Assembly: GCA_022661535.1 (NCBI GenBank)
Contig: JAKULF010000009.1
Span: 2,294,001-2,358,000 of the forward strand
Reading direction: 5' to 3'
DNA length: 64,000 nt
DNA from: Eutypa lata
Lineage: Eukaryota; Ascomycota; Sordariomycetes; Xylariales; Diatrypaceae
Positions within the stretch are counted from its first letter, which is position 1, and the number at the start of each line of letters is the position of its first letter. Positions 2,135 through 62,675 of this stretch are shown here, in pieces. Position numbers and translations under genes: made by a program. A model generated the notes under the pieces. That model did not search any database. It was not told the DNA's origin and was given only the letters and a program-made list of their open reading frames with translations.

Positions 2135-3839
2135 CGCGACAAACGGTAAGTGTGTTTAGTTCAGTCCGCGAAAATATGATATATAGTGTGCACGGATCTT
2201 ATCGTGGGGTACAATGGTTATTACTTATCATTCATCTCCTTCTCCCCTTTATACTAAGGGAGTGTAATGCCGATCTACGTAGAACCTCCAGATCTCGGCA
2301 TATTTCCCGTCACGATATCGGCGGCATCGGGGAATGATATGGCGGGGTAAGTGGGACATGCGGAGAAGCATGGCACCCTAGAACAAGACGGTGCGGGGAA
2401 TGCGGAGCTGGGAGTGACTGGAGTGGGTATTTGGGCTCGTGATGGGTTTCTTGTTCCCTCGTCTAGAGGGCACACCGCGACACCGGCGAATTCCTGAGTC
2501 CTAGTAGTTAGTGCTACTAAATGACGACGTGTAAGAACATTAACTCCCGAATGGAATGCGCCGGTGAACGGGTGCTAGAGAGCCAGTATGGTGTTTGTTC
2601 GTCCTATGCTTGCTGTGCTCGTGGATGTGTAGCAATACACAAGCAACAAGACAAATAATACGTGCATACCTACAGTACTAACATATGTAGTGTGTGTTAA
2701 AAAGCTGAATGCTGAGCTACGCTTAGACGGGAATACCGAGATATTCACTTAACAGACCAAAACCCGTTCGGTCATGTGTTACTCCGGAGCTGCGAGTATT
2801 AACTACCTAGCTCTAGGTATGTGCCGAAAGAGTTCTACGGCTCGGGCGCATCACCGTAGCCTGTCTAGCTCACACCTAGTTTCTCTTATGAGAGTATATC
2901 TTGCGCGTTGTAAACTTGTTTTGAGTTTTGAGATCTTGCATGCAGCAGCATATTCTACGTACGCCGACAGGAGCCCCATCTATTTGATGCCAAGCTTGTC
3001 TGAGCTCACTCTTCTTTGTCTTCCTAAGATTATGATGTATCTATGTCCCAGATGAAGCAGCAGGGAAGGCGCCGAAATTTGAAAGTGTAAGACACGAGCA
3101 GATGAGCTCTAAAGATGGAGGCGAATTCAATTGGCGTATGAAATGGTGTGTGTTTCATCGGCATTGGGAGGCGTCGATTATTCTGACCGCCACCACCGCC
3201 TAAGGGCGTGAGTGTTGTAAGCGCTAAAGACAAAACCCTTCACTGGTGAGGCGGGTTCCAGCATCAAATTGTTCTGATTGTACGGAATGTCACAGCATCG
3301 ACGTGCCACTATTCGTCGAAAGCTGGACCTCGCCCACCATTCCCTTTCTCTTATGCTGCAACGTAATTCGTGAGCGTGTCACCCCATCAGCTTCGCTGTA
3401 CCACCACACTTGTAATTCTATGTGTGGCCACACATGGCAACACAATAGTCGGGCGGACGTCTAAAGCCCCCTCCATAACACATCGGAAGCCGATGGCAAA
3501 TAGCAGCGATTTCTATGCGTCACACGCGGAACGTCGATGTACAATTGAAGAAGGCGGCGGAATGTCAATTCTCACTGATAGGGCTGAGCTCTTTTGCGAC
3601 GCCCCGCATGCTCCCAATGTGTGAATCGGGCTGCGACAAGGGAATTCATTCACTCACAGCCTTCTCGCCCCTGAATCTCGTGAGAGTGCGCCTATTGTAG
3701 CTTTTGATGTATATTATTTCTATTTATCAGCTCGATTCTTCAAATCTTATGCTTCCGACTGGTCCGCGACATGACTTTTCCTGCGATGCGATGTTAACTG
3801 AAAGCTAAAAACCCGTCCCGTACCGCTAACCCCCCCACG
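2135..3839. other. intergenic, promoter region, no gene recognised
   Basis: Short open frames only, none with recognisable composition. It holds the upstream region of the SDR gene and that of the RBR ligase gene. Nothing else is supported. Confidence 0.6.
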
Positions 3840-6062
3840 ATGTTCTGGCGACGTTCGCGACACAATCGCTCAGACCACCACTCCCGCCCGTCGCAACCCC
3901 AACGCGATGATCCCCCGGAGTCTCGGCGGCGGGAGGGCCAGCGTCACGACCGGAGGATCGAGATAACCCTGGAGGACCTTGATGCGGAAATATCGGGCAG
4001 ACATGCGAGCAAGATTGGCATTAAGAAGACATCTCAGCTAGGCCATGTCGTTGCCTTCCTGAAAAAGCGGTACGCCAAAGGACACCACCGGATACCCCCC
4101 GATGCGCGGATAGAGTTCTACTGGGACAGGGAGCGGTTAGATGGAGACGAGATTCCTAAGGTGATGAATACATTATCATATAGGGCCTATTGTGAAGGAG
4201 ACAACGGAGCCCTCCGTATTGACTGGAGCGGTTCCACCCTGAGCCTCGCGACTGGCCACAAAGAGCAGGTTGAGTCTGAGGTCCTGAAAGAGGGTACTGT
4301 TAGTAGCATCCGCAAAACCATTTTACGTTTATTGCGGGAGTCGGATACCAAGCTTGCTCACCTCGTAGAAGATCCGCTTCAGATCGAGATATGCGCCGTA
4401 GGAGGCCTGAGGCCGGGTGCATTGCAGGGAAGTAACTGGGTAGCACGCCGCGCAACGGATGCCTGGCTCTGTCGGTATATACGGATACATATAAGATCAC
4501 ACGGTGATTACTTTATCTTGAAGGGGTTTAATGAAGAGTATATCTGGCATCACCCGGAACTCGATCGGCGCGACTGCACCCACGTCCGCTCTCTCAAGCA
4601 ATGGCTGAGACGCGAGGTCCTCTCGGTTGCAGTTACCGGCCTGAACAAAATCCCGGTACAAAACGATGATATCCGACTTCTAAGCCAGGGGAAACTCCTG
4701 CGAGACCGGGCCCGGGTTCGCGTCGGGAGGACTCTCGACTTTAATGTGACACGCACGGTCGAGAACAAGTTCGTCGAAGTCGAAGGGTGGCTTCTCGAGA
4801 TGACGGAGATGTGTTCCGTCTGCAGCGACGATAAGAGGATTTCGGAGATGCCCCGGAAAATCACGGCATCTTGCACACACCCTGTCACCATGTGCAAAGA
4901 GTGTGTAACCCAGTGGATTGCGTCGAGTCTGGATACGGTTGCATGGGATCGCTTAAAATGCCCCGAGTGCCCCGAGTTGCTACGGTTTGAGGATGTTAGA
5001 GCATTTGCTTCACCTGATATATTTGAAAGGCAAGTGTTGTTGAAACTGACGGTTGAAGAGCCTTGTTACATCGCAACGCGTGGGCAAATTTGTGTGCAGT
5101 TTATCAACGGCATGGGTACTTGAAAAAGAAGCAAGCTGACCTAGGACAGGTACGATAATTTAGCCACGAGGGCGGCAATGGGCGGCATCACGGAATTCAA
5201 GTGGTGTCTCAACCCTCGCTGCAATGCTGGCCAGATTTATCCTCGAGGTTGCTCTAAAGCCCAATGCAATGCGTGTAAGCGTAGCATGTGTGTGCATCAT
5301 AATGTACCGTGGCACAAACATGAGACTTGTGAGCAGTACGACCATCGGACCCGTAGGCTGAGAAAGGGTGAGAAGGCTTCCGCGAAGTGGATAAAGGAGA
5401 CAACAAAGCCTTGCCCCCGGTGCGAAAGAGCCGTTCATAAGTACACAGGATGCGATCATATAACATGTAAGTTTCGTCCCGGTGCTACATTCCTCACTCT
5501 TGAGACTAACAAGGGGAATAAAGGCATTTGCGGTCACGAATGGTGTTGGCTCTGCCTGGCACCTCACTACCGAGATGATGACGGGCTGCTGCAGTGCAAG
5601 CATAGGGAAGATTGTCGCTACTTCCATCACCCACCCGATTACGAGGGCGGACGTGCATTCTTGCCCTTCCTCAATTTCGGCGGCCCGCCTCCGTTTCATC
5701 GACATGGGCATCCGCATCCGCATCCGCATCAGCACCAACATCCACATCAGCACCCACACCCGCATCCTCATCCTCATCCTCACCCCCATCCCCATCCACC
5801 GCCTCTGTTTCCGTTCCCTGCCGTTCCACCAGGCATGGATCACCATCCAATACCTCGACCCCATCCTCCTCGTGCCCCCGCCGACCCGTTCCGCTTCGTG
5901 TTCTTGAACGAGATGCTGGGACAGGGCGCGGTCAACCACCATCACCATGTTAACTTCAACGGCAACAATCAGGCGAGAGAAGCACGCCCGGGCCCGTTCA
6001 ACTTTGCTAGAGCTGCGGCAGGCTTTAATATGGAACAGTTCATGCAACGTGCCGGAAGATAA
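3840..6062 (+). CDS. RBR (RING1-IBR-RING2) E3 ubiquitin ligase with His-Pro-rich tail
   Basis: Exons 3840..5029, 5150..5466 and 5524..6062 give 681 aa. Domains in order: a basic N-terminus; a ubiquitin-like stretch near residue 280 (RLLSQGKLLRDRARV); RING1 at about 324-380 (CSVC, then CTHPVTMCKECV, then CPEC); IBR at about 410-455 (WCLNPRCNAGQIYPRG); RING2 at about 483-515 (KPCPRCERAVHKYTGC, then HEWCWLC). Cys498 in YTGCDHITC sits where the catalytic thioester cysteine of Parkin/HHARI RING2 lies. Intron 1 uses a GC donor (AG|GCAAGT) and CTGAC branch point; it is supported because the joined frame restores FERYDNLATRAAMGG, which is otherwise lost. Intron 2 is 57 bp and splits the CDHITC cysteine codon. 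The C-terminal 130 residues are His/Pro-rich. Such enzymes ubiquitinate proteins in the cytosol or nucleus; the target is unknown. Confidence 0.92.
5698..5805 (+). repeat. CATCCN hexanucleotide-type coding repeat (His-Pro/His-Gln tract)
   Basis: Within the last exon of the RBR ligase, codons alternate CAT/CAC with CCN or CAG, encoding about 18 His-Pro or His-Gln dipeptides (residues about 561-597). The array is a hexanucleotide minisatellite that keeps the frame when it expands or contracts. Confidence 0.85.
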
Positions 6063-9658: not shown

Positions 9659-12020
9659 TCACGAAGTTTTGCTGCCTTCCGAACGCCAGCTATCCAACGT
9701 AGATAGTGCCTGCTTAGTATGAGGATGTTCAGACCCTAAAGCTTCAACTAGCTCCTCAATGCATTCGTTCATGAAATTGATAGCCTTGTCAACTTTGCCT
9801 TGAGACTTCCAAATTTCCGCCAAAAAACACTTGGTACTTAGCATATCAGGATGTACTTCGCCCAACATTGTCTTCTGTCTCTCCGTTTCCGATATAGCCT
9901 GTGACGCCAATGACTCGGCTTCTTTCCACCGTCCTTGATTCAGATATATTTTTACTAAGGCATTGACAGCGGTCAGTAGAACGGGATGACCCGGGCCTAG
10001 TTCTTTTCTTCGCACCTCCATTACTTGTGATACCAACGGCTCGGCTTTGTCCCATCGTTTCTGGTGCATATACGTGTGTGCTAAATTATGCGTGGAAGCC
10101 AACGTGTCGGGATGTTCCTTGCCCAAGCTCGTCTTCCTCGTCTCCAGTATCTGGACCTCTAGCTTTTCGGCGCGTTGGTGTTGGCCTTTGCTTGAGTACA
10201 ACATTGCTAAGTTGTACTTACTGGTCACGGTTTCGGCGTTCTTGTCACCAAGTAACTTCTGCCTCGTGTCCTTCACTGAAACCAACAGTGACTCGGCCTC
10301 GTTCAAAGATCCACCATACATCCGTATGAGACCTAAAAGGGTTGAAGTCTCCAGTGTCTCTTTATCTTCTTTCCCTAGTGTCTTTTCTAGCACAGTGTGC
10401 GCGTCGTGTGCCATCCTCCCCGCGATGATATATCTGCCTTGGACCATTGCAAACGACGCAGCGTCGTGTAAAAGGACGGCCCGCTTCAGTGCCGACTTTT
10501 CATTAACTGGGGGGTAGTTTATGGCACCTTCAACATGGGCTAGGAGCTTCCGGCAAGTTTTCCAATTTTCATAGGACGGATCTGGGAATTCATTGGCTAG
10601 ACAGTCGATATAGTATTCCTTAAATCTTTCTGTTTCCTTGTGTGCTTCCAACCAATATCTTGCCGATACTTGGACCAACCCATGCATCTTGAAAATTTTA
10701 CCTGTGTCATCGACGGTGACTAAGCAATACTTTCTGAGCATCGCTATATCGTCTTCGAATGAATCTTTCTCAATAACGCTGCTCGTATTCCCTTCGACGT
10801 GGGATAAAATCAAGGTCTGTGGGATTCCCTGACAATCAAAAAAGCTCATTAGAGAAAGCACATTGGCTGCAGATTGTCTTTTGGAGTGAATATAATCAAA
10901 TGACATGTGAAATGTTGCAGATATTGATTTTTTCGAGCTTTCATCCCGTCGGAAGTAGGCTTCATCGTAGTTCATAAGCCGAGACTTGTTTGTCTCGTTC
11001 TCCTGAAACAACCTCAGGTATTCCTTCACTGATGTTCGGGGACTCCTGTGCTGTATGTAGGCCGCTGCTTGACTGATGGCAAGAGGTATGAACTCGAGCG
11101 CCTTTACAAGCTCTTGACCGGCATCTATATCCGATTTCCTCAATTTCTGTTCAAGAAGCCCCAGAGCCTGACTGGAGTCCATTGGTCCAACGTCAATGAC
11201 ACACTCAGGGTCGGGCGTTAGCCTGAATGCTAGCTCCTTGTCTTGAGTAGTAATAAGAACTGATCCGTTTGGACTTTGAGGTATATACGCCCACGGCGAC
11301 CTTGTCTCCCCTTCCTCGGAAAGAGCTGGCTGCTTTGCCTTTTCGGCTGTGTTATAAAACACATCGTAATCATCGACACTATCCAGTATTATGAACCATT
11401 TGTCGTCTGTTCCGGTGGATAGCCATCGCTTTATGAGATTCATTATGTCTGCGTTAGGCTGATCTCGACCAGGGAGCTTAAGAGCATCTGCAATGCCTCT
11501 GAAGCTCTCCTCAGCACGCGCCTTCGTACCGGCATAGACCCAGAACACCCAGATCTCTTCACCTTTCTGCGAAGCGCTGTCTTTAAGCCTATACGCATAT
11601 TCGATGGCAAGCTGTGATTTCCTACACCCGAGTCAGCTTTAACACTTCTACCATTTACATGATAACTCACCCCATGCCGCTTAATCCCACAAGTGCGACT
11701 TGAGAGGCAGGTTCGGAAAATGCCTGGGTTATCCGTTGGAGAAGATCTGGACGATCGACAAATCCGGTAGTATCGCGGCGGAAGGGAATGGAGAACCTTG
11801 GTTTCAGTGGTGCTTCTGATCATTCATATCAACCCAGTTAGCAGATTCGTAAATTCCAGGAAACAATATGCACCCTATAGAATCTCGTCGACCCTTAGTC
11901 ACTTAAACGGGCAAACCTACCGGGTGGCGAGCTGAAATGGTTTGTTATCGACCCGTTGTTCTGGCCCATTTGAAAACCGCGGTTACCATACCCGAAGGAA
12001 ATTTCTGCGAGGTCTGGCAT
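9659..12020 (-). CDS. NLR (STAND) receptor: N-terminal PP/RHIM-like amyloid motif, NB-ARC, TPR
   Basis: Exons 12020..11921, 11815..11671 and 11621..9659 give 735 aa. The start ATG opens a 33-codon exon, then a 105-bp intron (GTAGGT, CTAAC) and a 49-bp intron that splits the P-loop. The N-terminus is ISFGYGNRGFQMGQNNGS (residues 7-24), a short Gly/Asn/Gln motif with the G-x-Q-x-G core of fungal PP motifs and metazoan RHIMs. NB-ARC: Walker A GLSGMGKS (77-84), Walker B FIILDSVDD (158-166), sensor VLITTQD (203-209), GLPLA-like FIPLA (259-263) and MHD-like MHGLVQ (394). From about 466 to 700 there are tandem 42-residue TPRs (HPDTLASTHNLAHTYMHQ and similar). No enzymatic effector domain is fused, so signalling should go through the divergent gene at 12749. 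Related to PNT1-type sensors of programmed cell death and allorecognition. Confidence 0.9.
11983..12003 (-). other. PP/RHIM-like amyloid signalling motif, NLR copy
   Basis: Codes ISFGYGNRGFQMGQNNGS with the core G15-F-Q-M-G19 and following N21-N22-G23-S24. The interval marks the core and its close flank. It matches the effector copy at F9/F238, G10/G239, N13/N242, G15/G244, Q17/Q246, G19/G248 and NNGS (21-24 versus 250-253). Confidence 0.8.
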
Positions 12021-12748
12021 CGTGGATATTATGGCTGTATACTTGGATAATGATGGTGGTACTTAAGGCTGATGTCAGGGAAAGATAGATGATGCTGTTA
12101 GATAATAGCGTAGTTCAGTGAGAGATAGGGGTCACTGGGTCGCCAGAGGCTTTAAGTATAAACAATAGATGGTAAGACCGTTAATTCTTGCCGTTTTCTA
12201 GACATATTCTAGATATATGGGGTCTTGAGCCTTCTTTCTATGTGCTGCAGCGGACCTCCTGTATCACTAACCTCCTGTATCACTGGCCTCCTGTATCACT
12301 GGTGCCTTCCGCGTAATATTTGCCTGATCTCCTAACAATGGAATGGTGCTACCACATGAGGCCTCGAAAAGAAGGACCGCCCCGCACTTAATACACTTCA
12401 AGCGCTATGTGGCATATACGAACTGTCCCTAGCCGTCTTTATCGCTTAATGGTAGGGTCTCGTCTCTTTGCTGTTCTGATTTGGTCCTCGGAGAGCAAAC
12501 AATGTCGGGATTTATCGTTGTCGCGGCGCTAGGTACTTAGAGGGCACAGACTGGAGCCGAATCTCCGTATATATAGCGGCACTGCCTACCACCCAAATAG
12601 CCTTCTTCCTTTCCTTCTGTATGCAGCAACAGGATACTTCACCTAGCCCCTACTGTTCACTGTCTTCTTGACGATCATCATTTATATCTACATCTTCTCA
12701 ATCCTAGAATCGGGTCTCCCAATTCTGTTTTCCACCCTCGTCATTGCC
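12021..12748. promoter_or_regulatory. shared bidirectional upstream region of NLR and effector
   Basis: About 730 bp between divergent start codons. A TATATATA at 12568-12575 lies about 175 bp before the effector ATG, and TTTATACTTAA near 12150-12165 (minus) lies upstream of the NLR ATG. It also holds a three-unit direct repeat (separate entry). Co-regulation of sensor and effector is inferred from the layout, not seen. Confidence 0.45.
12255..12302. repeat. three tandem 16-bp units in the divergent promoter
   Basis: The unit CCTCCTGTATCACTGG is repeated three times head to tail; the first copy ends in AA instead of GG. It sits almost midway between the two divergent start codons. Confidence 0.85.
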
Positions 12749-13611
12749 ATGGCCGACCCCCTGAGCATTGTTGCTGGCGTCGCCGGTACTCTAGTTCCGG
12801 CACTCCATTGGACACGGGTCTTGCTGGACAATGTTGAGAAAGTTTCCGATGCACCGGCAGTCGTCAAAGCCTTGAAGGAAGACCTGTGTACCGTAAAGAT
12901 GGTGCTGGAATCGCTTAAAACAGTCACAGAGCCTCAATGGGACTCAGTTGGCACAGAGGTAGTCACGAAGCTGAATACCACCATAAGCATCTATACAGAA
13001 TCTTGCAACAAACTCGAAACCGACGTTGGCCACCTGACAAGGCATTCTGGAAAAATGACATTGAGAGATCGAATAAACATTCTTTTCAAGGAAAACCGCA
13101 TTAAATCAATGTCAGAGCAGCTACAAATATGCAAAAGCACACTCAGTGCTACCATGAATTCAGTGATGCTGTTAGTATCCCCTAAAGCTTACCTAGCAGG
13201 CCACCGTAATCTAACAATTGGTCTAGGGTTCGTTCCAATGTCAAGAGCCGAATCGTTCCCGATTTCATGAGCAAATTACTTGAAAATGGAGAAGAGATTA
13301 ATAATTCCATCACCACGACCAATGAACAACTCCTCGCGGTGAATACCAAGCTTGAAAATCTTTACCTCGCCGGAGGCGCGGCCGAGGACGATGTACTTAC
13401 CGATCGGAGAATACTTGAGGACGAGAAGACATCACTCGCAGTATGTCAAGATCTGCTTGAAGAAGTACGATCAAGGAATGAAGAAGAAAGGAAGAAGGTT
13501 GAACAACGGGAACAGGATCGGTCAATATCGGTGACATTTGGACGCAACAACTCTGGTATGCAACATGGAGTCAATAATGGAAGCATGGATGGATGGACAT
13601 TTGGCCGCTAG
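12749..13611 (+). CDS. HeLo-like (HELL-type) cell-death effector with C-terminal PP/RHIM-like motif
   Basis: Exons 12749..13170 and 13248..13611 give 261 aa. Intron 77 bp: donor GTTAGT, branch CTAAC, acceptor AG; the join restores SVMLRIVPDFMSKL. The N-terminus MADPLSIVAGVAGTLVPALH is the hydrophobic Gly/Ala-rich start typical of the fungal HeLo-like/STAND N-terminal domain, which forms a helical membrane-targeting bundle in HET-S/HELLP-class proteins. The helical domain runs to about residue 205, followed by a charged coiled coil (EEVRSRNEEERKKVEQREQ). The tail FGRNNSGMQHGVNNGS (238-253) repeats the motif at the N-terminus of the adjacent NLR. Predicted role: membrane-damaging executor switched on by templated folding of its tail. 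The assignment rests on domain order, shared motif and divergent pairing; an upstream in-frame Met at 12668 is less likely as start. Confidence 0.88.
13460..13608 (+). other. coiled coil plus PP/RHIM-like motif, effector copy
   Basis: Codes the acidic/basic coiled coil and then the motif F238-G...G244-M-Q-H-G248-V-N-N-G-S253, ending eight residues later at the stop. Position at the extreme C-terminus behind a flexible linker is the arrangement seen in HET-s and HELLP. Confidence 0.75.
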
Positions 13612-14318
13612 AATGTCTAAGTCTAAAGAGGCAACCGTGAGGATCAAGATGGGCAAGAGCTTTTAAGGTTGGAGGTTAAACTACTTGTGTTGCGTTACAA
13701 ACCGTTTGAATCAACTGCTTTTTTTCCTTCTTAATATGTCTTGTCCATGCGTACAGTCCATAGGACGACATGAATAGCACTCTATGAACTAATCGCAATG
13801 CTCAACTTATATCTTTATATTACTTTCGTGCACGTCAGAATAGCAACTTCATATTGTAAAGGGTACCCATTAAGCTCACTACAGTAGTAAACAACCATCA
13901 GCTTTGAAATCATACGGACATTAGTTTCAGCTCTCTTATTTCAGAGGGAGCTGTAATGTTGCTGCGCAATATAATTAAATGCCCCCCCCTTGGCTAGAGA
14001 TTGCTACCTACAGTTTCATTAAAGAAGGTCCAGAGCGAGCCTTAATAGATCTAGACAGAATACTAGCTGCCAAGGGTATAGTTGGTGGTGCGGTTTGGTG
14101 GTAACGCAATTTAGGCTAACCGCTTAATTGGCGTTTACTATCACGAAGATACCACCCTATACCCGGGTACGCGGGACGTCAATTCCGTAAAGGAACTGTA
14201 TACTAAGGCATGAACACAACATAAAAGCCGATGATCCCCAATCCATTATGAGAATACTAGCACGAGCCTCGTATGACTGTCCAATCGCGAATTGATCAGA
14301 CACTGCAAGCAATCCAGC
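13612..14318. other. intergenic, nothing recognised
   Basis: AT-rich with a short C homopolymer near 13981. Promoter of the secreted HExxH protein must lie at its right end. Confidence 0.5.
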
Positions 14319-15696
14319 ATGAGGATACCTTGGTCAATCACCACATTATGGTGGTGCGCCCTGACGGCCGTCAACGGCGCTCCAACCCAACGACTAGCAG
14401 CACCGCCGACAGAGTTCACCCCGAACACGGGGGTCGGTCCCGGAGGCAGCAGGTTCAAAGACTCACCACACTTCCGCATCTACGATGCCGCGAGTGATGC
14501 CGTGGCAGACACCATAATCCAGACTCTAGAGTCGGCGTACGACTGCTTCGTCAACGGTCAGGGATGGCGTTCGACAGGCCTGTCATTCAACACGGAGAAC
14601 GACGACGGGCCATGGTACAAGATGAACGTCTACAGCGTAGCCGACCTGGGGCCGAACACGGCCGCGAACACCGGGACGGATATGAACGAGGGGCTGAGCT
14701 TTCTCAACGTCGTGACGCAGTGGATGAACACGCCGTCGATAACCGTCCACGAGTTCGGACACGCCATGACCTACGCTGAGCGCTACTGGATCAACCAGGG
14801 GCGCACGGGAGCCTGGTGGGAGACGGTGGCGAACTTCGTGGCCGACACGTTCATCACGTCCCCGATCTGCGCGGAGTCCCGCGCGAAGTACAACCAACCT
14901 GAGGGCGACACGCTCATGAACCTCCAGAAAGTGATCAGTGACTCGTACCAGGTCATCGTAGATGGGATGAGTGGTGGGAACTACTACGACGCCTGGCCGT
15001 TCCTAGTGTATATTGCCAACAATCCCGACGAATACGCCGGTCTCGGCATGGCTAATTTCAGAAATGTATGGCTCAAGTATAGCCGGGACAGCAATGAGAC
15101 TCCTCTCCATGTGTTACAGCGCCTCGCGACGTTGACCTCCATCCAGACTGTCGTAGGCAGGTATTGGGCACGAATGGCCTACGTCGATATCGGACATCCA
15201 AAAGCTAGAGATTTGTTCGATAGGACGAAGGGAAACTTCAACTACGCTAGTATGTGTTTTAACCCCCCCTTAATTCTCAACGTGGTATATCATTTTAGAT
15301 TCCCATAGTTGTCTAGAAGCATAATTTACTAAGAACGTGTTTCCAGATTTGGATTCCTTAGGCGGTGGAAGTTATCGGGTCAAATCAGCCCGGCAGCCGA
15401 AGTACATGGGTGCAAACATTATCCCTTTGAAGGCTAGCAGCGGATCGGTCAGTGTTACAGCAACGGCATCAGCGGCATATACGGCAACATTGGCAGTCAG
15501 GGCTTCAGATAAATCCGTTCGATACGTCGATTTAACGAATGGTCAGGGGCAGGTGGATCTGAAGAGCGGAGAGGAGGCTAGCCTGGTGGTGGCCAACACA
15601 CCTAGTACACTCTATCTTTATGACCCCTTTTCGCTTACTAGTGAGGTAAGCCGGGGGCTAGATTACCAAGTGCAGATCACCGGAGCAAGTGTTTAG
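14319..15696 (+). CDS. secreted HExxH (gluzincin-like) protein, DUF6055-type
   Basis: Exons 14319..15249 and 15347..15696 give 426 aa; intron 97 bp with GTATGT donor, CTAAG branch and CAG acceptor. The start at 14319 is chosen because MRIPWSITTLWWCALTAVNG is a good signal peptide; an in-frame Met at 14292 would bury it. The mature part has HEFGH (144-148) followed by a Trp-rich helix WWETVANFVAD with Glu168, giving HExxH-x19-E, the zinc-ligand pattern of gluzincin-like peptidases. The C-terminal exon is a beta-rich Ser/Thr/Ala domain ending in LDYQVQITGASV. It resembles fungal secreted DUF6055 proteins, for which peptidase activity is predicted rather than shown. Likely secreted to the cell wall or medium. 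Confidence 0.82.
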
Positions 15697-37169: not shown

Positions 37170-40100
37170 ATGAGCGGTTCCATCATGACTGTGGCGGTCC
37201 CAGCCGTCGATCCCATACAGTCATCTTCACAATCAACCTCCCACTCCCAGTCAGCTTTCTTCCACCGATCACACTCCACTTCAGACCTGCTGTCCGGAAC
37301 ACCACGTCGATTCACACCGAGCTCAGACCCTTCCTCGCATTCGCACATCCGTTCTCTGAGCGTACAGAGTCTGCCGAGCTCGCCCGCCTTCGATTTTCCT
37401 TCGTTTGACTTCGAGTCGGATTTCAGCAGTAGGCTCTCCCTCTCCGCCGACGACTTGAGCATAGGCTTTGGCACAAATGAGAAATCCACGATCGTTCAGA
37501 GCGAGAAGATACCGTCCGTGCTTGAGCAAAGGACGGGAAAGATGGGCAAAGGGAAATCGATTTTAAACAGACCACAAATACGGACCCCCTCGTCCAAATC
37601 ATCGTCCGTGGAGAAAAGAGGGGGGGATCATGGAGAGGGTATGGAAAGGAGAAAAGAAGAAGAAAAAGACACAAACAATGAAAAGGAGGTCGGGAAGTCC
37701 AGGTTCTTAGAACCAAACCCTCGTGGAAAGACGAAAGCCGTCACAGATTCCTTGACATCCCTTGCACGGCGCTCATGGATGGCTACGTCGCGGTCTCCTT
37801 CACCTGGTAACAAAGAGGAGGAAGGGAACAAGAAAGAAGACTCCGATGGCGTTCCTAACGTTTTATCAACAGGTCGCGAGCGTTCCAATAGCGCTAGTTT
37901 AGGCTCTACGTTGACTCGAAGGATGTCACGCAGATTTCAAGTTTCACCCATTGATAATGAAGATGGGAAAACTCTAGATTCGCGGGGAAAATTGGGAAGC
38001 TATATCACTAAGATCAAACAGCGACCTCAAGTAGCTCTGGCTAGGGGCAGAGCTTCTAATAGCGTGGGAAGTACTGCTTCTTCGACGACTAGCCTTGCTC
38101 CGCCTTCTACCGATACACGCCTTTCACACGCGTCTGAGAGAAGCAGCAACACTGTTCCGGAGGATGTCGTTACCGCACTAAAACCGCCAAAAGCTCGTGA
38201 TCCCCTATGGTCTCTGTTCAAGAATCTCGAGTCGGAATATAGTAAATTCCAGGCGAAATCTGCACCCGCCAGGATGAACCTAGTCCGAAGTGTACTTTTA
38301 CCATTTTTACGGAATTATGCCTCCCACGTGTCGAACAAGCGGCTGTCTCCCGAGGATCTGGAGCGGAGAGCTATGATCCTGAACAAGTGGTGGAGTGGGC
38401 TGCTCGAGATGCTCGATGGGAGAGCCGAGTATTCCGTAGCCGGAGTCGACCGACCGACATTAATCGAAGTCGTCACCCTGATCATGATGCGCCCCGAATG
38501 GCGACAGAGTACCACAAGCTTCACCCCACTGTCGGATCGACGTCCTCGAGAAAGTCCGAAAACGCGAGCACGAATGGACACAAATGCATCCTGCTCAGCA
38601 GGTTCTGTCGAATCAACCGATTCCGAATATTTTGCCGAATCTGCAGAACACAACGTAAGGACAATGTTTGTGAACAACTTAATTGCGCAGATGACCATCG
38701 CTGTAGACAAGCTATCCCTTCGGCATACTCCTCTAGTTCTAGTCAATTTTGCCGGCAAGACTTGTGCTTACGCATTCTTTTTTGCTCCTGGGATTGCCGA
38801 TGTATTGGTTCGAATTTGGGCTCTAAAACCTGATTTGATTCGCCGTATTGCAGACGAATTCCACCTACCTAGGTTGAGCCAGTCCGAAGATAGCGATGTA
38901 ACAGCGCTGTTTCCACCGAATCTAGCACCTCTAGGCTGGAGCTCGATGAGAGCAATGTCGTCCAAATTGCGGGAGACTCCAACCCTCCCTCTAACTGCTG
39001 CGAGGATCAACTGGCACGGACCTTGGTTATCGCGATGGCGAGGCCGAGATACTGATCTCTTCTTCATTTTCTGCAAGTACTATTATATACTAGCGGAAGA
39101 GTTCATGCCATCCGAGCTTCCTCTTGTCGAAAAAGCTAGGGCCCCGGGCTTTGTGCTCATAAATGCTCAGATTCTTTCTGTTCTCGACTCAACGATTCAC
39201 CGGCAAGCAGCTGCCGAGGCCAGCTTAGGTCTTGCGCTCACAGACGCCTCGCCTGGAAACGATGCTATGGCCATGCCATTGCCATTGCCTGTGGCAGCGA
39301 ATGCCATGAAAGGCATGGGTGACAACCGGTTGATTGTCCTGCTGAAAGATATCCTCTCTAGCGCGGCTGTTGGACTATCCGATGCGCGGCACACATTCGC
39401 TGGGTCATTCATGTCAATCATGAAGGCTTCCGCCAAGCGAACTTCACAGTATGATCACAATGCCTGTTTCGTTCTCTGCGATTTTCTCGAGGAGGTACTG
39501 CAGGTTTTCGATAACTTTGTGGACTTACAAAGACCTGGCCTCAACCATGTTGACTGGTCGTTTTGGCTCGAAGCCTGGAAGAAAGTAATGGACTCCCACC
39601 ATACCATGTCGGAAATCCGAGTCCTTTCACTGTTATTCTCGCTGTGGGATGCGATATCTAGCGATCCGGTTCGGAAAGAGCAGTTCTGCATGGACTGGTT
39701 GCTGACACCAGAAACCTTCAGCAAATTATTTACAAATTGGTGTCCAATGGTTAGAGCCTACTACATGCGATTGCTGTGCTGGAGAATTTGCAGAGACGCT
39801 GGTCAGGCGAATGAGTCAGATGCGTAAGTCCTTCCTCACTATCAATCTATATCTGTACTGATTCGACTTCACAGCAAGATTTTTCTGCTTGTTTCATCAC
39901 GCTTGAGAACAACGTGGTCCCATTACTTATGGCTGAAGCAGGATGCCGAGAGGAGGGGCTGGTTCCCTCCATCGACGGCACCCTCGTATCCGGCGCCTGG
40001 CAAACGATTCATGATTATCCGTACTGAGGCCACTCTATCCCAGCCTGGATTAGTCATGGGCTTTGACCACTTCACCAATACAGTTTCGGAACCAGAATTT

Positions 40101-40913
40101 ACGCATGATCCGGCTAACATATTTGACACGCTTGAGTCGCCAACATTTGAGACCAAGAAGAAATGGGGTCTTCTAGGTAAAGTATTCTCGTTCAGTGGAA
40201 ACAACAATTCCAACGATCTAGATAGTATCAGACGAGAGACAGCAATGACCCGAAGCAAACCTATACCGCCGCCCAAAAGCCTGGTCAGCTCCGTGACCCC
40301 ACCTGCTTCCGACTCCGATAGCATGGGCTCGGCCCCTACATTTGACACACTCCAATACGTTTTCAAGTTCGTTCTATCATACAATGCCTACGGGACCATG
40401 GCTCCACCCAATCGCATCCTCACCCGCCCCCGTCTACCAGGTCCTGCGCAGTCTTGCGTCAACTCAAGAGACGCCAACGGGGCTCTATCACAGCCTGCTG
40501 CTGGACGGCCCTCTGCTACTAGAGCTTTCTCTGGAAGCTCTCATGCAGGGCTTGTAGATTCTGCGAGGAATGCTGGCCCTGCTGGTGCCTCTCCAACGTC
40601 TATTCGGACAACTGCGTCGTTTGATCGCAGTAATAGCCCTGATTCTCTTAGTCCCGTCGAGCAGACTAGTGTTGATCCGCAACCAAACGTAAATGCCGTT
40701 ACACCTACCCAAGAGCCTATTACGCAGCCAGTTCGACCAACCGGTATATTTGCCGGCACAACGAAGTATGCTGGGCGTGCCCTTGCTGAATGGGGTCTTG
40801 TTGTTGGTGAATGCAATGGATTCATCGACAGGAGAAGAGATGAGGGTGTTTTAGGTCTAAGTGATGTTGAGGTCCCGACTCTCGGTGTCGAAGGAATTAG
40901 GAAAATTGGTTGA
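37170..40913 (+). CDS. DUF1765 domain protein, 1230 aa
   Basis: Exons 37170..39823 and 39875..40913 with a 51-bp intron; the join reads NESDAKIFLLVSSRLRTTWS. The first 340 residues are Ser/Pro/Arg-rich and disordered with many SP and RSxS phospho-site-like motifs. The conserved DUF1765 part starts near WSLFKNLESEYSKFQAKSAP and covers a helical region of several hundred residues to about the exon junction (FCMDWLLTPETFSKLFTNWC). The second exon includes APPNRILTRPRLPGPAQ and the strongly conserved C-terminal end, from YAGRALAEWGLVVGEC to DEVGVLGLSDVEVPTLGVEG-like sequence. The family is fungal-wide and uncharacterised. No transmembrane segment or signal peptide. The length is normal for the family; the assignment is from remembered C-terminal conservation. 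Confidence 0.85.
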
Positions 40914-54481: not shown

Positions 54482-56756
54482 CTATGCACCCGAGACGAGT
54501 TCTTGAGTGCCCGATCGTGCGGTGAACGCGTCTAGGTCCATCAATCCCTTCACGAGAGTCTTCAGCTTCTTGGTCAAGTCCTCGCGGTCCTTCACCGTGC
54601 CGTCGTCCTCGGATCCCAGCTCTTCGACCTGCTCGTCTGATAGGTCCCATACCACGTCGGGAGAGAACCTGTGAACAAGAAGAATCATGATTTAGCAAAT
54701 GACTTCCCAGCTTATAGCTTCTGAAAGACTTACACATTTGGGAGACACTGAATAAGACAGGTCTCGATGGCGTTGACGCTTATATCGTCAATGAACTTCT
54801 TGAGGGCGACCTATGACGTGTAAGTCTTGCCAAGTCATGGAAATTAGGGGATGATTGTTTGATTGTTACCTCGTAATAAGCGGCGGCGACATCTACAGCA
54901 AGTGAGGCGGAATATTCCTCCACATTTGGCCGTGTTCCTTTTCTTAATTCTCCCAGAAGTGATTTCAATTTTATGTTGTGAGTCTCATCTTTGGCTGTGT
55001 CGGCGGTGAGTTTGCAAATAGAATTACACAACTTGTCAAAATTGGCATCATGGCGTTGAGTCTGAATCTTCTGGACTATATCCACTAGCCAATCGTTATA
55101 GGTGATAGGGTGCACCGACAGATGCGGCTCTAAGAGCTCATCTACTTTCTGCTTCAAGTCTGTTCGAAGCTGGTGTAGCGATGGTTGGATTAATCCTCTC
55201 ATCAAGCGAGACTTGGTATTCTGATCGCAGAGCTCCGACACAATTTTGTTGAAAGTTGTCGTAGCTGCTTCGTGGATGTGCTCAACCAAGTCCCGAGTAA
55301 TGGCTTCCCAAGGTTTGCATTGCCGACTGAACATGTCCCCTACAACGAGAGGATTGAACGTTCCCGGCAGTTCCCGGCCCCGGCATTCAACCATGAGAAC
55401 TTTGACCTCTTCCAGGTACTCTGTTCTCATCATGAATTGAGAAGCTTTAATCCGGCGCGGCTTCTCGTAGTCCTCGACAATTTCTAAGGCGTGTCCACTG
55501 GTGCGCATCTTCTCCGCATAGTCAGTGAGAATCTTTTGCACATTGGCACGTAATCGTCGCTCAAATGCGTCCTGTTGCCTAGGAAAGGACTCAAAGAATC
55601 GATGAGAGTACACGCCATCGATGGCTGCGCGGACAAGCACGGAGAGACGACTTGAGATATGCTGAAGGTAAGTATGCTTTTCCTTCCGACTGCTCCATGC
55701 CTTCCCAAGTTGTTCCAACTTATGATTGCAGTCCTTTATTCCAGACTGCACATCGGACTTGACACCAGGAAGCCCCCGTTGGATGTGCTTCCAAAGAATT
55801 TCACGCAATCGTGTTCTGAGAGCCTTGACTCCAAGCTGGTAAGGCTCCAGGACGTTCCACGCCGAGTCATTGAAGAAAGTAGCCTCTCTTGCATCTCGCT
55901 CATCAGTAGTATCGTCGATAGTTTTATGGCTACGATTACGTAGAACATGCCAGCCAAGGTTGAGCTTGACGTTCTGGTTCTGAGCCATATCTACATAATA
56001 TTTTTCGCCATCCGAGTCCCTGTCTATCTTATCTGGCTTGGTGATTAGGCCGAGTGTTCTGACTCCCTCTGGATCAATATCTCGAGCAAATTTGGTAACA
56101 GGCTGGTTCGCGAATGGAGTATCGGCTGTGACGACAGCTAGGATAATACTGCGCTTCTGCTGCATATATGAAGTGACCAAATCATGAACTAACTTGGCGT
56201 CATCGTCCGATTGGTTCTTGTCAGACGCGCCAAAGAGTCCAGGAAGGTCAACAAGCGTCAAGTTAGGTGCGTTCGGTGAAGTACTCTCGATACGCAGCAC
56301 ATCAGTACTGTAAACTTTGGATCCTTCCCCAACAAGGCCCATAGCAGCCTTTGCTGCTTCGACAATCCTCGGAAAATCCTTCTGATCGCTTGTTCTTGCG
56401 AACGCAAGTAGTCTCCGCCGACTTTCCTTACTTCTCTTGGCGGCTGGTTGGATATGGACTTTCAGTTCATGTTTGTCACCACGCCTCAGAATGAGCTCTG
56501 TGGCAAATCGTGTGCAGAGGCCTTCAGCGGTAGGAAACGCAATGCCGGAAAGTGACTCAAGTGTCGAACTCTTTCCCGAAGACTGGCTTCCACACACAAT
56601 GATCTGTGGTAGATCCACATAGTGACTGACACCACGAGACCGTAGCGAGTCGACGACATCTAGCAGATCTCTGTGGCTCGTTGACTGAATCAAACCTGAT
56701 GTCTGCTGGGAGATTTGTTCCGCTAAATCACCCGTCGGGGCAAAGGTGTCTCCCAT
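54482..56756 (-). CDS. dynamin-superfamily GTPase (fungal Mx/Vps1-like)
   Basis: Exons 56756..54870, 54810..54734 and 54668..54482 give 716 aa. GTPase motifs: G1 GSQSSGKSS (56-64), switch region with FPTAEGLCTRFATEL, G3 DLPGLFG and G4 TKPD. The helical stalk follows (GVKALRTRLREILWKHIQRG, LPGTFNPLVVGDMFSRQC). A GED-like end is split over the last two short exons (VALKKFIDDISVNAIETCL, FSPDVVWDLSDEQVEEL). There is no PH domain, no proline-rich tail and no transmembrane segment, unlike classical endocytic dynamin or mitofusin-type members. Such stand-alone genes are abundant and variable in filamentous fungi, related to Mx proteins; functions in membrane fission or antiviral/heterokaryon defence are conjecture. 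The frame is fully intact. Confidence 0.9.
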
Positions 56757-57927
56757 TTTGCTGTTTTGTTAGTCTAGGAAACACAGTTGATTTGGCTGAG
56801 ATTAGATGGCGGAATAGGATCAGATTATAGGGAAATCTGTCTGCTTTATAAAAGGCCCAGTCAGGACTAAACAGATTTGTTCATAAAGACCAAGGTAAAA
56901 GAATCCGTAGCAGCCTCATCTTTGGTGCAAGTTGCCCTGGGGCCTTCTGAAAATTGGGCCTCAGGGTCTCAATAACTACTAGACTCTAGCTGCCTCAGGG
57001 AACCAACGGTCTCCTGCAGGTTGACAAGGGTGGACCATGACCAAAACCAGGTACGAAGCAGGCAGACAAGTCTTATCTAGCAGTCTTCTTTGAATGTGAT
57101 AATTGATGTAATTTTATGTAAGCAGCTTTCATGTCTAGCCTCGTTACCTGGTGCATACATACACTGTTTGAGCATACCCATGAAGTAGCTCATTCGATGA
57201 CATGCATGCGAAGCCCTATAACTTCATGTAGAACTCCTCCACTGATATCTTTGTTTGGTCCCACTTTTGACCCTTCACCTGAAGTTTGGAATCAAAGGGG
57301 CTGAATGGGATTTGGTCGTCTTAGCTGATAGGGGGAATTTGGAGCAACAGAAGCATATAGTCTAACTACCTCACAATGAACGGACCTATTTACAAGTTAC
57401 ACACATAACTACTTACATACTCTAGATTCATCTAGTCTTACGAATACATCTCCAGCAAAAGACTCCGCCGCCCTGAGATTGGGTGAGTCTTAATGAATAT
57501 TAAAAATTAGAAGACATGATTGGACCCTGAAATCTTCAACGGCGTTCTAGTCTCCCGAATCCCCGACTTGCCCCCACTTGAAATGGAAGATTCCGCGTAA
57601 AGGAAGTGCAGGCGTGGCTTAGCCGATTTAGTGGGGGTTTATCCTTATGTAATTAACTAATAGCGTTCTGGTAGGGAATAGGATTGATTCTTAGACTAGG
57701 CGCAACAGTTCCCTCCTATCCAATTACAACTTACAACTTATTACTCGAATTTATATATTCCCTTGATGGCTTCCGCCCAGCAGACTTTGAGGCGTGATAG
57801 ATTCGGTTTCTCAATGACATCATGCGACTTGACATAGTCTGTCGATTCTGGAGTATAGCGCTACTTGGTTGTAAACTACACAAACATACTGCCCCCTGAC
57901 CCTGGACCTCAGGCACTTATTTATAAG
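56757..57927. other. intergenic between divergent dynamin-type and Zn2Cys6 genes
   Basis: 1.2 kb shared upstream region; no coding frame recognised. Confidence 0.5.
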
Positions 57928-59532: not shown

Positions 59533-61298
59533 ACGGGCCTCGAATACATATACATACATAGTAGTTACCTAGAACAACTCCATACATATATGTATAGTGG
59601 TCTTTATTACCACTTCTGAGGTAGCCGCGTCCGGATGTCGCAAACTCGCGCCAGGATTGCCCGCCGAACCTTGAGACCGCGAGGAGTCTGGATATATATA
59701 TCATGACGTAGGTGTCGTTGACATCGCGCATGAGCTATACGTTATAATACCCGAGAAGTTGGAATAGGTACGGCCTTGGCTATGACACATCTTTTGAAAT
59801 CAAAGATAGACGACGCAGCAGTACTTATCTACCATCAGAGATTTATCGGTGCTTGCCTAGGACGTCGAGCTACTCTTTAACAAGTCACTGGGTATGTGAG
59901 GGGATGGGTGGGATTGGTGGGTGACACGAGAATTAGGGGTCGAATGGTGGGGATGCCAGCCTGGAGGAGATAACCTCACCTCACGTCGTCGTCGCACAAC
60001 AGAGGATGGATGTGTCACTCTGATAACCCCATTTTGAGCAAATGAGGGACATCGTTCATAGATAACGACTTAACCTACATATATAAAGGCAGTTGGAACA
60101 AATGAAGGCTTATTAATAAGTAAATGCAACGACATTATTACTGCATAAAACAGAGCATTTAATATTATGATAGTAAATCATTATATTGCTGGTTATTCTT
60201 TTGATGGCCCAGCTTCTGATGACCTATCCTAAACTTTGACCACCTAGATTCAACGGCCTTTCCAGTCTTTGAAGCTATTGATAACCTAGGTGGTCTGGCT
60301 GTTGACGGGGTCTCTTAACCGTCATTATAGACTTAGAAAATACAACATCCCTTATCCTCCCCCATCCTAAATTAACTCCAGTTAAGTCTACATAATCTAC
60401 CTACGTAACCTACCTACATAGACGGACATTTATAGTAAAACTCTAGGCAAGCCAAGTTAGTATCTTTTGATCGAATATCTCTGGGTACCTAATGGGATCT
60501 AGAAATATATACATACCGAATACCACCACTGTCTGCTCTGCCTACATGTAGGCAGCTCTTGGCTACAACTAGTCTATTTTAGAGTTTTATACCAACAGAA
60601 AGTTTAAATAGAGAGCAGGGAGTTCTGAGTAGTACTAGTTATTTCCAAGCATCTAGATAAATTTCGAACTATTTACACCTCTTAAGAGGTACACTGCAGC
60701 TTACTGGCTAGTTGATAAACGATCAATATTGTTACACTCTTTTCTGCCAAGCGCTATTAGCTACGAATCAACTATCTCAGTCCCAGGGATGAGACTTAAG
60801 TACACACATGTGCGCAAATAGTAGAAATATCTCTTGCGTGAATTAATAACTAACGTTGAAGTTATAACCCGAACGATAATACAATTAAGCATGAGCATAT
60901 TTGCAACTATCGGGTATGGTGTATTATCCAGTTATTGCATGCGGCTCTCGATAATCCTAGCACTTGCTTCCCTAACCTTAATCTCTGGTTCCAGTGGGCT
61001 GGACGGGCCCTTTTACTGGATATCGGAGAGCCTTAGCCTAGTATTTCTTAGCCTCAAAAAGAGACGACAGGGGAAACTGTCGCAACTGACAGGATCACCC
61101 CGAGAAAAAGGTTCAATTGACGTTGCACCTAAAGAATTCAATTCACTTCGAGGAATTCAATTTGGAAGTCAAGCTCCGACAAACGTCTGTCTTAGTCTTA
61201 TCGGTTACAACATGCGTATGTCAGAAACTGGAATCGCATTTCTTCCAACGGACCTCATCCGCGACACCCGATTTCCATTCCTCTAGAAACCCTACACG
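59533..61298. other. intergenic, no gene recognised
   Basis: AT-rich; contains CATACATATATGTATAG near 59582 and repeated CTACCTACGTAACCTACCTAC near 60400. A 150-codon open frame (60834-61286) just upstream of the next gene is not protein-like. Confidence 0.5.
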
Positions 61299-62675
61299 AT
61301 GCGACGACCTATGTCCGTCTCACGGGCGACCCCGGTCTGCCAGATCTGCGAGTCAATATTCTCACGACGTTTACACTCTGCTAAGCTTGTTACTATCCCT
61401 AGAACACCTGTTCGGGCGCAACGAGGCAGTGTTCTTGCCTCTGCTAGATTACGCGACAGGCATTTATTAGTTACGGCAGCAGCAGCATCAATCAGAGCGG
61501 CAACGGGACAGAATGCGGCAAGAACAATAAGTAGCGTTGCAGAAAACGCTAGAGAACCTCATCATGCTACGGAGCAGGGTACAAGGGCGGCTAGTCAAGA
61601 GCTATCGTCCGTAACCAACATGATAACCTTCTTAGAGAACAGCAGATTAAAAATCCTCAACCACCCAAAAATCCCATCCGAGGCGGAGATAAGCCATGCC
61701 CTGCAGGCCTGCCTCGTTGTGGCTGATTACATCATGGATGAATCGGTCCAGCCTCAGATTACACACATGATCAAGGAGATGGACTCGACAGCATCAAACC
61801 TATTGTCCCTGGATAAGATAAAGCCTTCCCCCAAAAAGACCCGGGCTCCCAACGCGCCAAACACAGCCTCCGAGAGGATAACAGCCCAGTTCCGCGTCTT
61901 AGTGGACAGGATATCAGATACCGCGTACGCAATCCTGGCCCACCCACCCGTCTTCATCACGCCAAGCCTCCTCCAGCAGTACGTGGACGTCCAAGCTCGG
62001 CTGGGCAAGCCCGAGACCCTCGCCAAGGCCTTCCACCTCTACGCCTCGAAGCCCATGCCGCGCGCGACATCCGGCCGCGGCGGTGGAACCGCGAGCATCA
62101 GCTACGCGAAGCAGAACCCGCACAAGATCGCGAATGCCATCGAGCCGGCCGTCATCGAGAAGGCCCTCGACACGGCGATCGAGGCCAAGCACCTGGACGC
62201 GGCCGTCGGCATCATCGAGAGCAGCTACACGACGAAGGCGTACATCCGCGCGAAGTTAGTGCGGCACGCCGTGCTGCCCGCGGGTGCCGTGGTCGGCGTG
62301 CCCCTGGCGGCCTACGCGCTGGCCTCGAGCCTCTCCTCCCTCCAGAACACCATGGACCCGGCGACGGCCACAAACGTCGCGTTCGCGGGCATCCTGGCCT
62401 ACGTTGGCTTCACGGCGTCGCTCGGCGTCGTGGCCCTGACCACCGCCAACGACCAGATGCGCCGCGTTACCTGGGCCCCCGGCGTCCCGCTGCGCCACCG
62501 CTGGATCCGCGAGGAGGAGCGCGCCGCCCTCGATAAGGTTGCCTGCGCCTGGGGCTTCCAGGAGAAGTGGCGCCAGGGCGAGGAGGAGGGCCGCGAGTGG
62601 AACGTCCTGAGGGAGTATATTGCCACGAAGGGCATGGTGCTTGATCGCACCGAGCTCATGCCGGGCATGGAGTGA
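61299..62675 (+). CDS. predicted mitochondrial membrane protein, 458 aa
   Basis: Intronless. The N-terminal 75 residues are rich in Arg/Ser/Ala and lack acidic residues until C-ICE (MRRPMSVSRATPVCQICESI), fitting a mitochondrial presequence. The middle part is helical (AEISHALQACLVVADYIMDE, QFRVLVDRISDTAYAILAHP, QQYVDVQARLGKPETLAKAF), possibly PPR-like helical pairs. Two transmembrane helices lie at about 325-347 (LPAGAVVGVPLAAYALASSL) and 358-385 (NVAFAGILAYVGFTASLGVV). The charged C-terminus WIREEERAALDKVACAWGFQ with KGMVLDRTELMPGME is well conserved-looking. I recall similar proteins across filamentous fungi without known role; inner-membrane location is inferred. Confidence 0.8.
   Translation: MRRPMSVSRATPVCQICESIFSRRLHSAKLVTIPRTPVRAQRGSVLASARLRDRHLLVTAAAASIRAATGQNAARTISSVAENAREPHHATEQGTRAASQELSSVTNMITFLENSRLKILNHPKIPSEAEISHALQACLVVADYIMDESVQPQITHMIKEMDSTASNLLSLDKIKPSPKKTRAPNAPNTASERITAQFRVLVDRISDTAYAILAHPPVFITPSLLQQYVDVQARLGKPETLAKAFHLYASKPMPRATSGRGGGTASISYAKQNPHKIANAIEPAVIEKALDTAIEAKHLDAAVGIIESSYTTKAYIRAKLVRHAVLPAGAVVGVPLAAYALASSLSSLQNTMDPATATNVAFAGILAYVGFTASLGVVALTTANDQMRRVTWAPGVPLRHRWIREEERAALDKVACAWGFQEKWRQGEEEGREWNVLREYIATKGMVLDRTELMPGME

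What the first reader, a model, noticed from the sequence alone, without database searches (positions are those of the whole stretch)
9659..13611. Divergent NLR / HeLo-like effector pair sharing an amyloid-type signalling motif
The 735-aa NB-ARC/TPR receptor starts with GYGNRGFQMGQNNGS, and the 261-aa HeLo-like protein encoded on the opposite side of a shared promoter ends with GRNNSGMQHGVNNGS. The copies agree at F, G, N, G, Q, G and NNGS with identical spacing around a G-x-Q-x-G core, as in RHIM and fungal PP motifs. Known fungal systems (NWD2/HET-S, PNT1/HELLP) use exactly this geometry, N-terminal on the sensor and C-terminal on the executor, to transmit a death signal by templated amyloid folding. 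Both motif exons are easily missed: the NLR motif sits in a separate 33-codon first exon.
Basis: partly seen in the sequence, partly recalled or inferred. Interest (0 to 1): 0.93.

Follow-up and report, generated by a model that had tools for sequence, protein, structure and literature searches.

The report
Fungal PP-motif NLR and HeLo-like pair
Two back-to-back fungal genes, an immune-type receptor and a probable membrane-killing protein, share a short amyloid-type tag of a kind already known in other fungi, so this is a well-supported new example of a described cell-death switch rather than a new one.

Summary
A minus-strand three-exon gene gives exactly 735 aa: N-terminal motif, NB-ARC-like NTPase, TPRs.

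The match is not chance. Homolog-derived profiles, window excluded, find only these two places in the window. Pfam Ses_B over the 54.5-Mb genome at E<=10 also gives only these two, below its cut-off. The motif sits at the C-terminus of 36 of 38 effector homologs of 240 aa or more and near the N-terminus of 26 of 116 NLR homologs.

Both copies fit the published PP core NxGxQxGxN and the pair has PNT1/HELLP architecture, worked out in Chaetomium and Podospora. One oddity: a core histidine in the effector, seen in 0 of 58 homologous motifs. Amyloid formation and killing were not testable here.

The parts
11921..12020 (-). NLR exon 1 (33 codons + 1 nt), carries the N-terminal PP-type motif
   Evidence: ATG at 12020, GT-AG intron 11920-11816 joins in frame to the next exon; the exon-1 ORF is matched by homolog profiles
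11949..11996 (-). PP-type motif of the NLR, residues 9-24
   Evidence: fits NxGxQxGxN (PMC9815663); PF17046 hit in own genome at window 11943-11993, 16.3 bits against cut-off 23.2, but no Ses_B row for the spliced NLR at E<=0.1; head profile 37.0 bits, tail profile 18.0 bits
11671..11815 (-). NLR exon 2 (linker and start of the P-loop)
   Evidence: intron 11670-11622 (49 nt) restores a GLSGMGKS P-loop
9659..11621 (-). NLR exon 3: rest of the NB-ARC-like NTPase, DUF7779, TPRs, stop
   Evidence: NB-ARC PF00931 22.7 bits (cut-off 23.5), NACHT 20.6 (cut-off 26.7), DUF7779 27.8 (cut-off 27), TPR_10 115.2, TPR_12 110.5
12021..12748 (.). 728-bp intergenic region between the two divergent ATGs (probable shared promoter); 3 x 16-bp tandem repeat at 12255-12302
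12749..13170 (+). HeLo-like effector exon 1 (PF17111); residues 1-19 are the most hydrophobic 19-residue stretch of the protein
   Evidence: AlphaFold model, mean pLDDT 86.7
13227..13611 (+). HeLo-like effector exon 2 in the preferred 268-aa model (13248-13611 in the 261-aa model), including stop
   Evidence: 263.5 against 252.9 bits
13537..13584 (+). PP-type motif of the effector, residues 245-260 of 268
   Evidence: fits NxGxQxGxN; tail profile 37.7 bits, head profile 19.2 bits; PF17046 19.5 bits in own genome, 17.7 and 16.3 bits, cut-off 23.2

Best explanation
A PNT1/HELLP-type two-component amyloid signalosome. SHOWN here (sequence): a PP-type motif at the N-terminus of an NB-ARC-like/TPR NLR and a homologous motif at the C-terminus of a divergently encoded PF17111 HeLo-like protein, each conserved in homologs. 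INFERRED from the characterised family: a ligand binds the TPRs; the NLR oligomerises through its NTPase; the clustered N-terminal motifs nucleate a cross-beta fold; that fold templates the effector's C-terminal motif; the HeLo-like helical bundle is released, inserts its hydrophobic N-terminal helix into the plasma membrane and kills the cell, as immunity or allorecognition.
Confidence: 0.87

Rival explanations
1. The pair is homologous to PNT1/HELLP but one side is decayed or changed (effector core His), so it no longer signals by amyloid templating, or does so only under particular conditions.
For: His at the second variable core position of the effector motif, absent from 58 homologous motifs; two nearly invariant Trp of the HeLo-like domain (alignment positions 96 and 105) read Leu in the window.
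Against: Both frames are intact with GT-AG introns; core G, Q, G and flanking N and G are kept; 5 of the 58 homologous motifs also have a polar residue (T, Q or S) at that position; the closest relative, P0002 (85% identical over exon 1), also has Leu at both Trp positions, which speaks for lineage divergence, not decay.
Confidence: 0.08
2. The motifs are a scaffolding or non-lethal signalling tag: the NLR clusters the HeLo-like protein for another output.
For: PP motifs also occur on a putative lipase (SBP) in Chaetomium (PMC7885112, PMC5485727), so the motif is not tied to one output.
Against: The partner here is a PF17111 protein with a hydrophobic N-terminus and a predicted fold that lists MLKL N-terminal domains among its neighbours; Podospora HELLP kills when triggered by PP prions and CgHELLP is described as cell-death-inducing (PMC7885112).
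Confidence: 0.04
3. The resemblance of the two N/G-rich tails is chance or low-complexity convergence.
For: Short motif rich in G and N; Pfam profile below cut-off.
Against: Homolog-derived profiles in both directions, 20 shuffles for one of them, the two PF17046 hits as the only ones in the genome, and conservation at the same ends in homologs.
Confidence: 0.01

Closest known systems
PNT1/HELLP of Podospora anserina (Pa_5_8060 / Pa_5_8070; PMC7885112)
   Same: NB-ARC/TPR NLR with N-terminal PP motif adjacent to a HeLo-like protein with C-terminal PP motif; two-gene cluster; similar effector size (HELLP motif region given as residues 214-271)
   Different: Different lineage; own TPR array; effector core residue is His; relative orientation of the Podospora genes not seen by me (figure not held); no functional data here
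CgPNT1/CgHELLP/CgSBP of Chaetomium globosum (PMC7885112, PMC5485727)
   Same: Same receptor and HeLo-like effector architecture and motif class
   Different: No third PP-bearing gene found here: the strict core occurs only twice in the window and PF17046 gives two hits in the genome, within the limits of those searches
PP motif class NLR07 of Wojciechowski et al. 2022 (PMC9815663)
   Same: Core NxGxQxGxN, motif near the NLR N-terminus, Ascomycota, HeLo-like or enzymatic effectors in the neighbourhood
   Different: Their profile files (supplements) could not be run here
NWD2/HET-S (HET-s motif, HRAM)
   Same: Logic: receptor N-terminal motif templates effector C-terminal motif
   Different: Different motif class, NACHT/WD receptor, two repeats on the effector (PMC5485727)
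RHIM (RIPK1/RIPK3)
   Same: GxQxG-type core only
   Different: No RHIM row in the Pfam scans; different protein architecture

Membership tests
PP-type PNT1/HELLP signalosome | NLR with NB-ARC and TPR and a short N-terminus | tested here: met
   TPRs strong, DUF7779 above cut-off, NB-ARC 22.7 bits just under cut-off 23.5 (homologs P0067 and P0068 above it); P-loop restored by splicing
PP-type PNT1/HELLP signalosome | PP motif (core NxGxQxGxN) at the NLR N-terminus | tested here: met
   residues 9-24; pattern from PMC9815663
PP-type PNT1/HELLP signalosome | HeLo-like (PF17111) protein with the same motif at its C-terminus | tested here: met
   PF17111 66.7 bits against 27.2; motif ends 8 residues before the stop
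PP-type PNT1/HELLP signalosome | Genes adjacent | tested here: met
   divergent, 728 bp between ATGs
PP-type PNT1/HELLP signalosome | HeLo-like domain resembles the MLKL four-helix bundle | tested here: inconclusive
PP-type PNT1/HELLP signalosome | Motifs form amyloid/prions and cross-seed | not testable with these tools
   needs wet-lab work
PP-type PNT1/HELLP signalosome | Effector kills cells at the membrane when seeded | not testable with these tools
   needs wet-lab work
Pfam Ses_B (PF17046) | Score above the curated cut-off of 23.2 bits | tested here: not met
   16.3-19.5 bits where listed; spliced NLR not listed at E<=0.1; homolog P0092 passes at 36.0 bits
RHIM | Match to a RHIM family profile | tested here: inconclusive
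   no RHIM row in Pfam scans (at E<=1 without the NLR head; at E<=0.1), but HMMER filters can drop weak short matches
HRAM / HET-s motif | Match to a HET-s-motif profile; two repeats on a HeLo-like effector | tested here: inconclusive
   no HET-s-motif family listed in the Pfam scans and the tail profile finds one copy on the effector; the published HRAM profiles were not run

The most novel reading that the evidence does not exclude
The pair carries a diverged PP core (His in the effector core, receptor and effector motifs 10 of 16 identical) that makes its amyloid switch conditional, for example pH-dependent, or confines seeding to its own receptor, giving a natural specificity variant of fungal RHIM-like signalling.
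Probability: 0.08. Interest if true: 0.5.

Novelty: new member of a known kind. Interest (0 to 1): 0.27.

Why it matters
It adds a PP-type receptor/executor pair from a probable Xylariales genome, including a motif-bearing first exon that gene callers can miss, and supplies a natural motif variant for testing which residues set seeding specificity. It does not change the picture of how fungal amyloid signalling works.

Tried and rejected
A third PP-bearing gene (SBP-like lipase): not found. The strict core occurs only twice in the window; PF17046 gives two genome hits; homolog profiles found no credible motif in 15 fetched loci, chosen from the places listed (best 10.7 bits in a 15-residue peptide between stops), nor in the 1.5-kb flanks of the 17 PF17111 loci apart from this one. 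Motifs split by an intron would be missed, and not all NLR matches were fetched. Genome-wide absence is not proven: single-sequence searches with the effector tail or a homolog tail found only the effector copy and missed the NLR copy, so their sensitivity is low. One search, a degenerate DNA pattern meant for the effector motif, was mistyped by me and does not match even the window's own copy; its zero has no value.

Receptor/effector co-variation: in 5 same-genome pairs chosen and gapped by hand, the summed score was 240 against a mean of 200.6, with 4 of 120 permutations reaching it. This is confounded by relatedness and not used as evidence. For two of these pairs (Nemania P0005/P0068, Bisporella P0065/P0107) both proteins report the same longest-contig length, which suggests linkage but does not prove adjacency.

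Solved structures by sequence: neither the effector alignment nor the motif alignment finds a meaningful relative (best E 0.1 and 0.15, unrelated proteins). The plain Foldseek listing against the PDB could not be run; only the VIA-align second look on Foldseek's ranking was. A fold of a full-length homolog was not accepted, so disorder of the tail was not tested. A literature search with Diatrypaceae, Eutypa, NOD-like receptor, amyloid and HET-s (listing of 8 of 41 papers) showed no title about this pair.

Rows dropped: P0001 and P0002 (the window's own exon and an exon-only relative) left out of the counts over 63 effector homologs; 3 of 38 tails left out of the tail profile for length; 24 of 58 motifs used in alignment A2; 30 of 63 effectors, chosen as motif-bearing, in alignment A3, which I therefore do not use as conservation evidence. 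One script stopped with an error in its last print, after the counts used.

Full report
WHAT IS THERE. The window lies in a 54.5-Mb, 29-contig genome at C9:2294001-2358000. A dynamin-like gene of the window (54783-56768) has Diatrype stigma as its closest named relative at 85% identity, then Monosporascus ibericus at 79% (best 120 of 3322 listed), so the source is probably a Xylariales fungus near Diatrypaceae (one gene; the family placement of Diatrype is recalled). The minus-strand gene splices into exactly 735 aa from exons 12020-11921, 11815-11671 and 11621-9659. It has a short N-terminus with the motif, a P-loop restored across intron 2, an NB-ARC-like region (22.7 bits, cut-off 23.5), DUF7779 (27.8, cut-off 27) and TPRs. 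The plus-strand gene starts at 12749, 728 bp from the NLR start, and ends at 13611. Its N-terminal part is PF17111 (66.7 bits, cut-off 27.2).

IS THE SHARED MOTIF REAL. Receptor residues 9-24 and effector residues 245-260 agree at 10 of 16 ungapped positions. Both fit NxGxQxGxN, the core that Wojciechowski et al. give for the PP class (PMC9815663, passages read), and that pattern appears nowhere else in the window's six-frame peptides of 20 aa or more. A profile of 35 homologous effector tails, window excluded, finds the effector ORF (37.7 bits) and the NLR exon-1 ORF (18.0 bits, E 2e-4; 13.2 bits, E 0.0066 in the spliced protein); the next of 2034 targets scores 5.0 and the best of 20 shuffles 9.8. 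The profile of 20 NLR heads gives 37.0 and 19.2 bits, next 7.5; it was not run on shuffles. Pfam Ses_B over the whole genome at E<=10 rings at these two places only, both below its cut-off; the tool scored two candidates, and 1 of 14 control genomes also rings below cut-off. Against this, Ses_B does not list the spliced NLR at E<=0.1.

RELATIVES. The effector search returned 65 proteins and the NLR N-terminal search 116. Leaving out P0001 and P0002, 38 of 63 effector relatives carry the tail motif by pattern. Of the 38 that are 240 aa or longer, 36 do; 20 of the 25 without it are 206 aa or shorter and look like one-exon gene calls. Of the NLR relatives 26 of 116 carry the N-terminal motif by pattern or tail profile, 21 of the 36 with a P-loop at residue 50-110; of the 90 without it, 48 have no P-loop by my pattern, 8 have it before residue 50, 19 after 110 and 15 at 50-110. 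The strict core is a minority: 4 of 65 effectors and 10 of 116 NLRs. At its last N position 28 of 38 effector tails and 6 of 20 NLR heads have Ile, while 5 and 10 have Asn as in the window. In the 38 tails the first core G is kept in 38, Q in 37, the second core G in 34 and the last G in 38.

HOW IT WORKS. The best reading is a PNT1/HELLP-type two-component system. [quoted passage not shown] The Chaetomium globosum version has a third, lipase-like member (PMC5485727, parts 1 and 2 of 4). PMC12881547 (passages) explains the name PNT1 as PP-NB-ARC-TPR, which is this receptor's architecture. Wojciechowski et al. list 296 NLRs with the PP motif NLR07 and 37 matching motifs in genomic neighbours. 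Ligand, oligomerisation, amyloid templating and killing are inferred for this pair; gene structure (as models), motif homology and domain content are shown.

WHAT IS UNUSUAL. At the residue after Q in the core the effector has His; 0 of 58 homologous motifs do. Of the 58, 53 have A, V, L, F or I there and 5 have T, Q or S. This may be drift in one lineage or may tune seeding; it cannot be decided here. No SBP-like third gene was found in the window and no second PP pair was detected in the genome, within the limits of the searches.

VERDICT. Observation confirmed with a small correction to the effector model; interpretation supported; novelty limited to a new member of a published kind.

Noticed in passing
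G000:C14:595248-595697 (L001, L041): The best PF17111 match in the genome (80.7 bits) has two stops inside the matched stretch, so it holds an intron or is decayed; no PP motif was found around it.
   Followed up: partly
G000, 17 loci (L001-L017): 17 HeLo-like PF17111 places in the genome at E<=0.001, 14 of them over the cut-off; only the window's one shows a PP motif within the 1.5-kb flanks searched.
   Followed up: partly
window 14277-15305 (+): DUF6055 protein (41 bits, cut-off 27) with an HEFGH stretch, metallopeptidase-like, about 700 bp downstream of the effector stop.
   Followed up: no
window 54783-56768 (-): Dynamin-family GTPase; several named homologs are called interferon-induced GTP-binding protein Mx.
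   Followed up: no
window 12255-12302: Three 16-bp tandem copies in the shared intergenic region.
   Followed up: no
window 3798-5120 (+), 39828-40910 (+), 61287-62672 (+): Long open frames (441, 361 and 462 aa, stop to stop) with no Pfam family at E<=0.001.
   Followed up: no
homolog sets: Impression: PP motifs fall into a form with Asn and a form with Ile-Asn-Gly after the GxQxG core, and receptor and effector of a lineage tend to share the form (the former mostly in Xylaria-like fungi, with exceptions such as P0075; taxon placement recalled). Not tested beyond the small permutation.
   Followed up: partly
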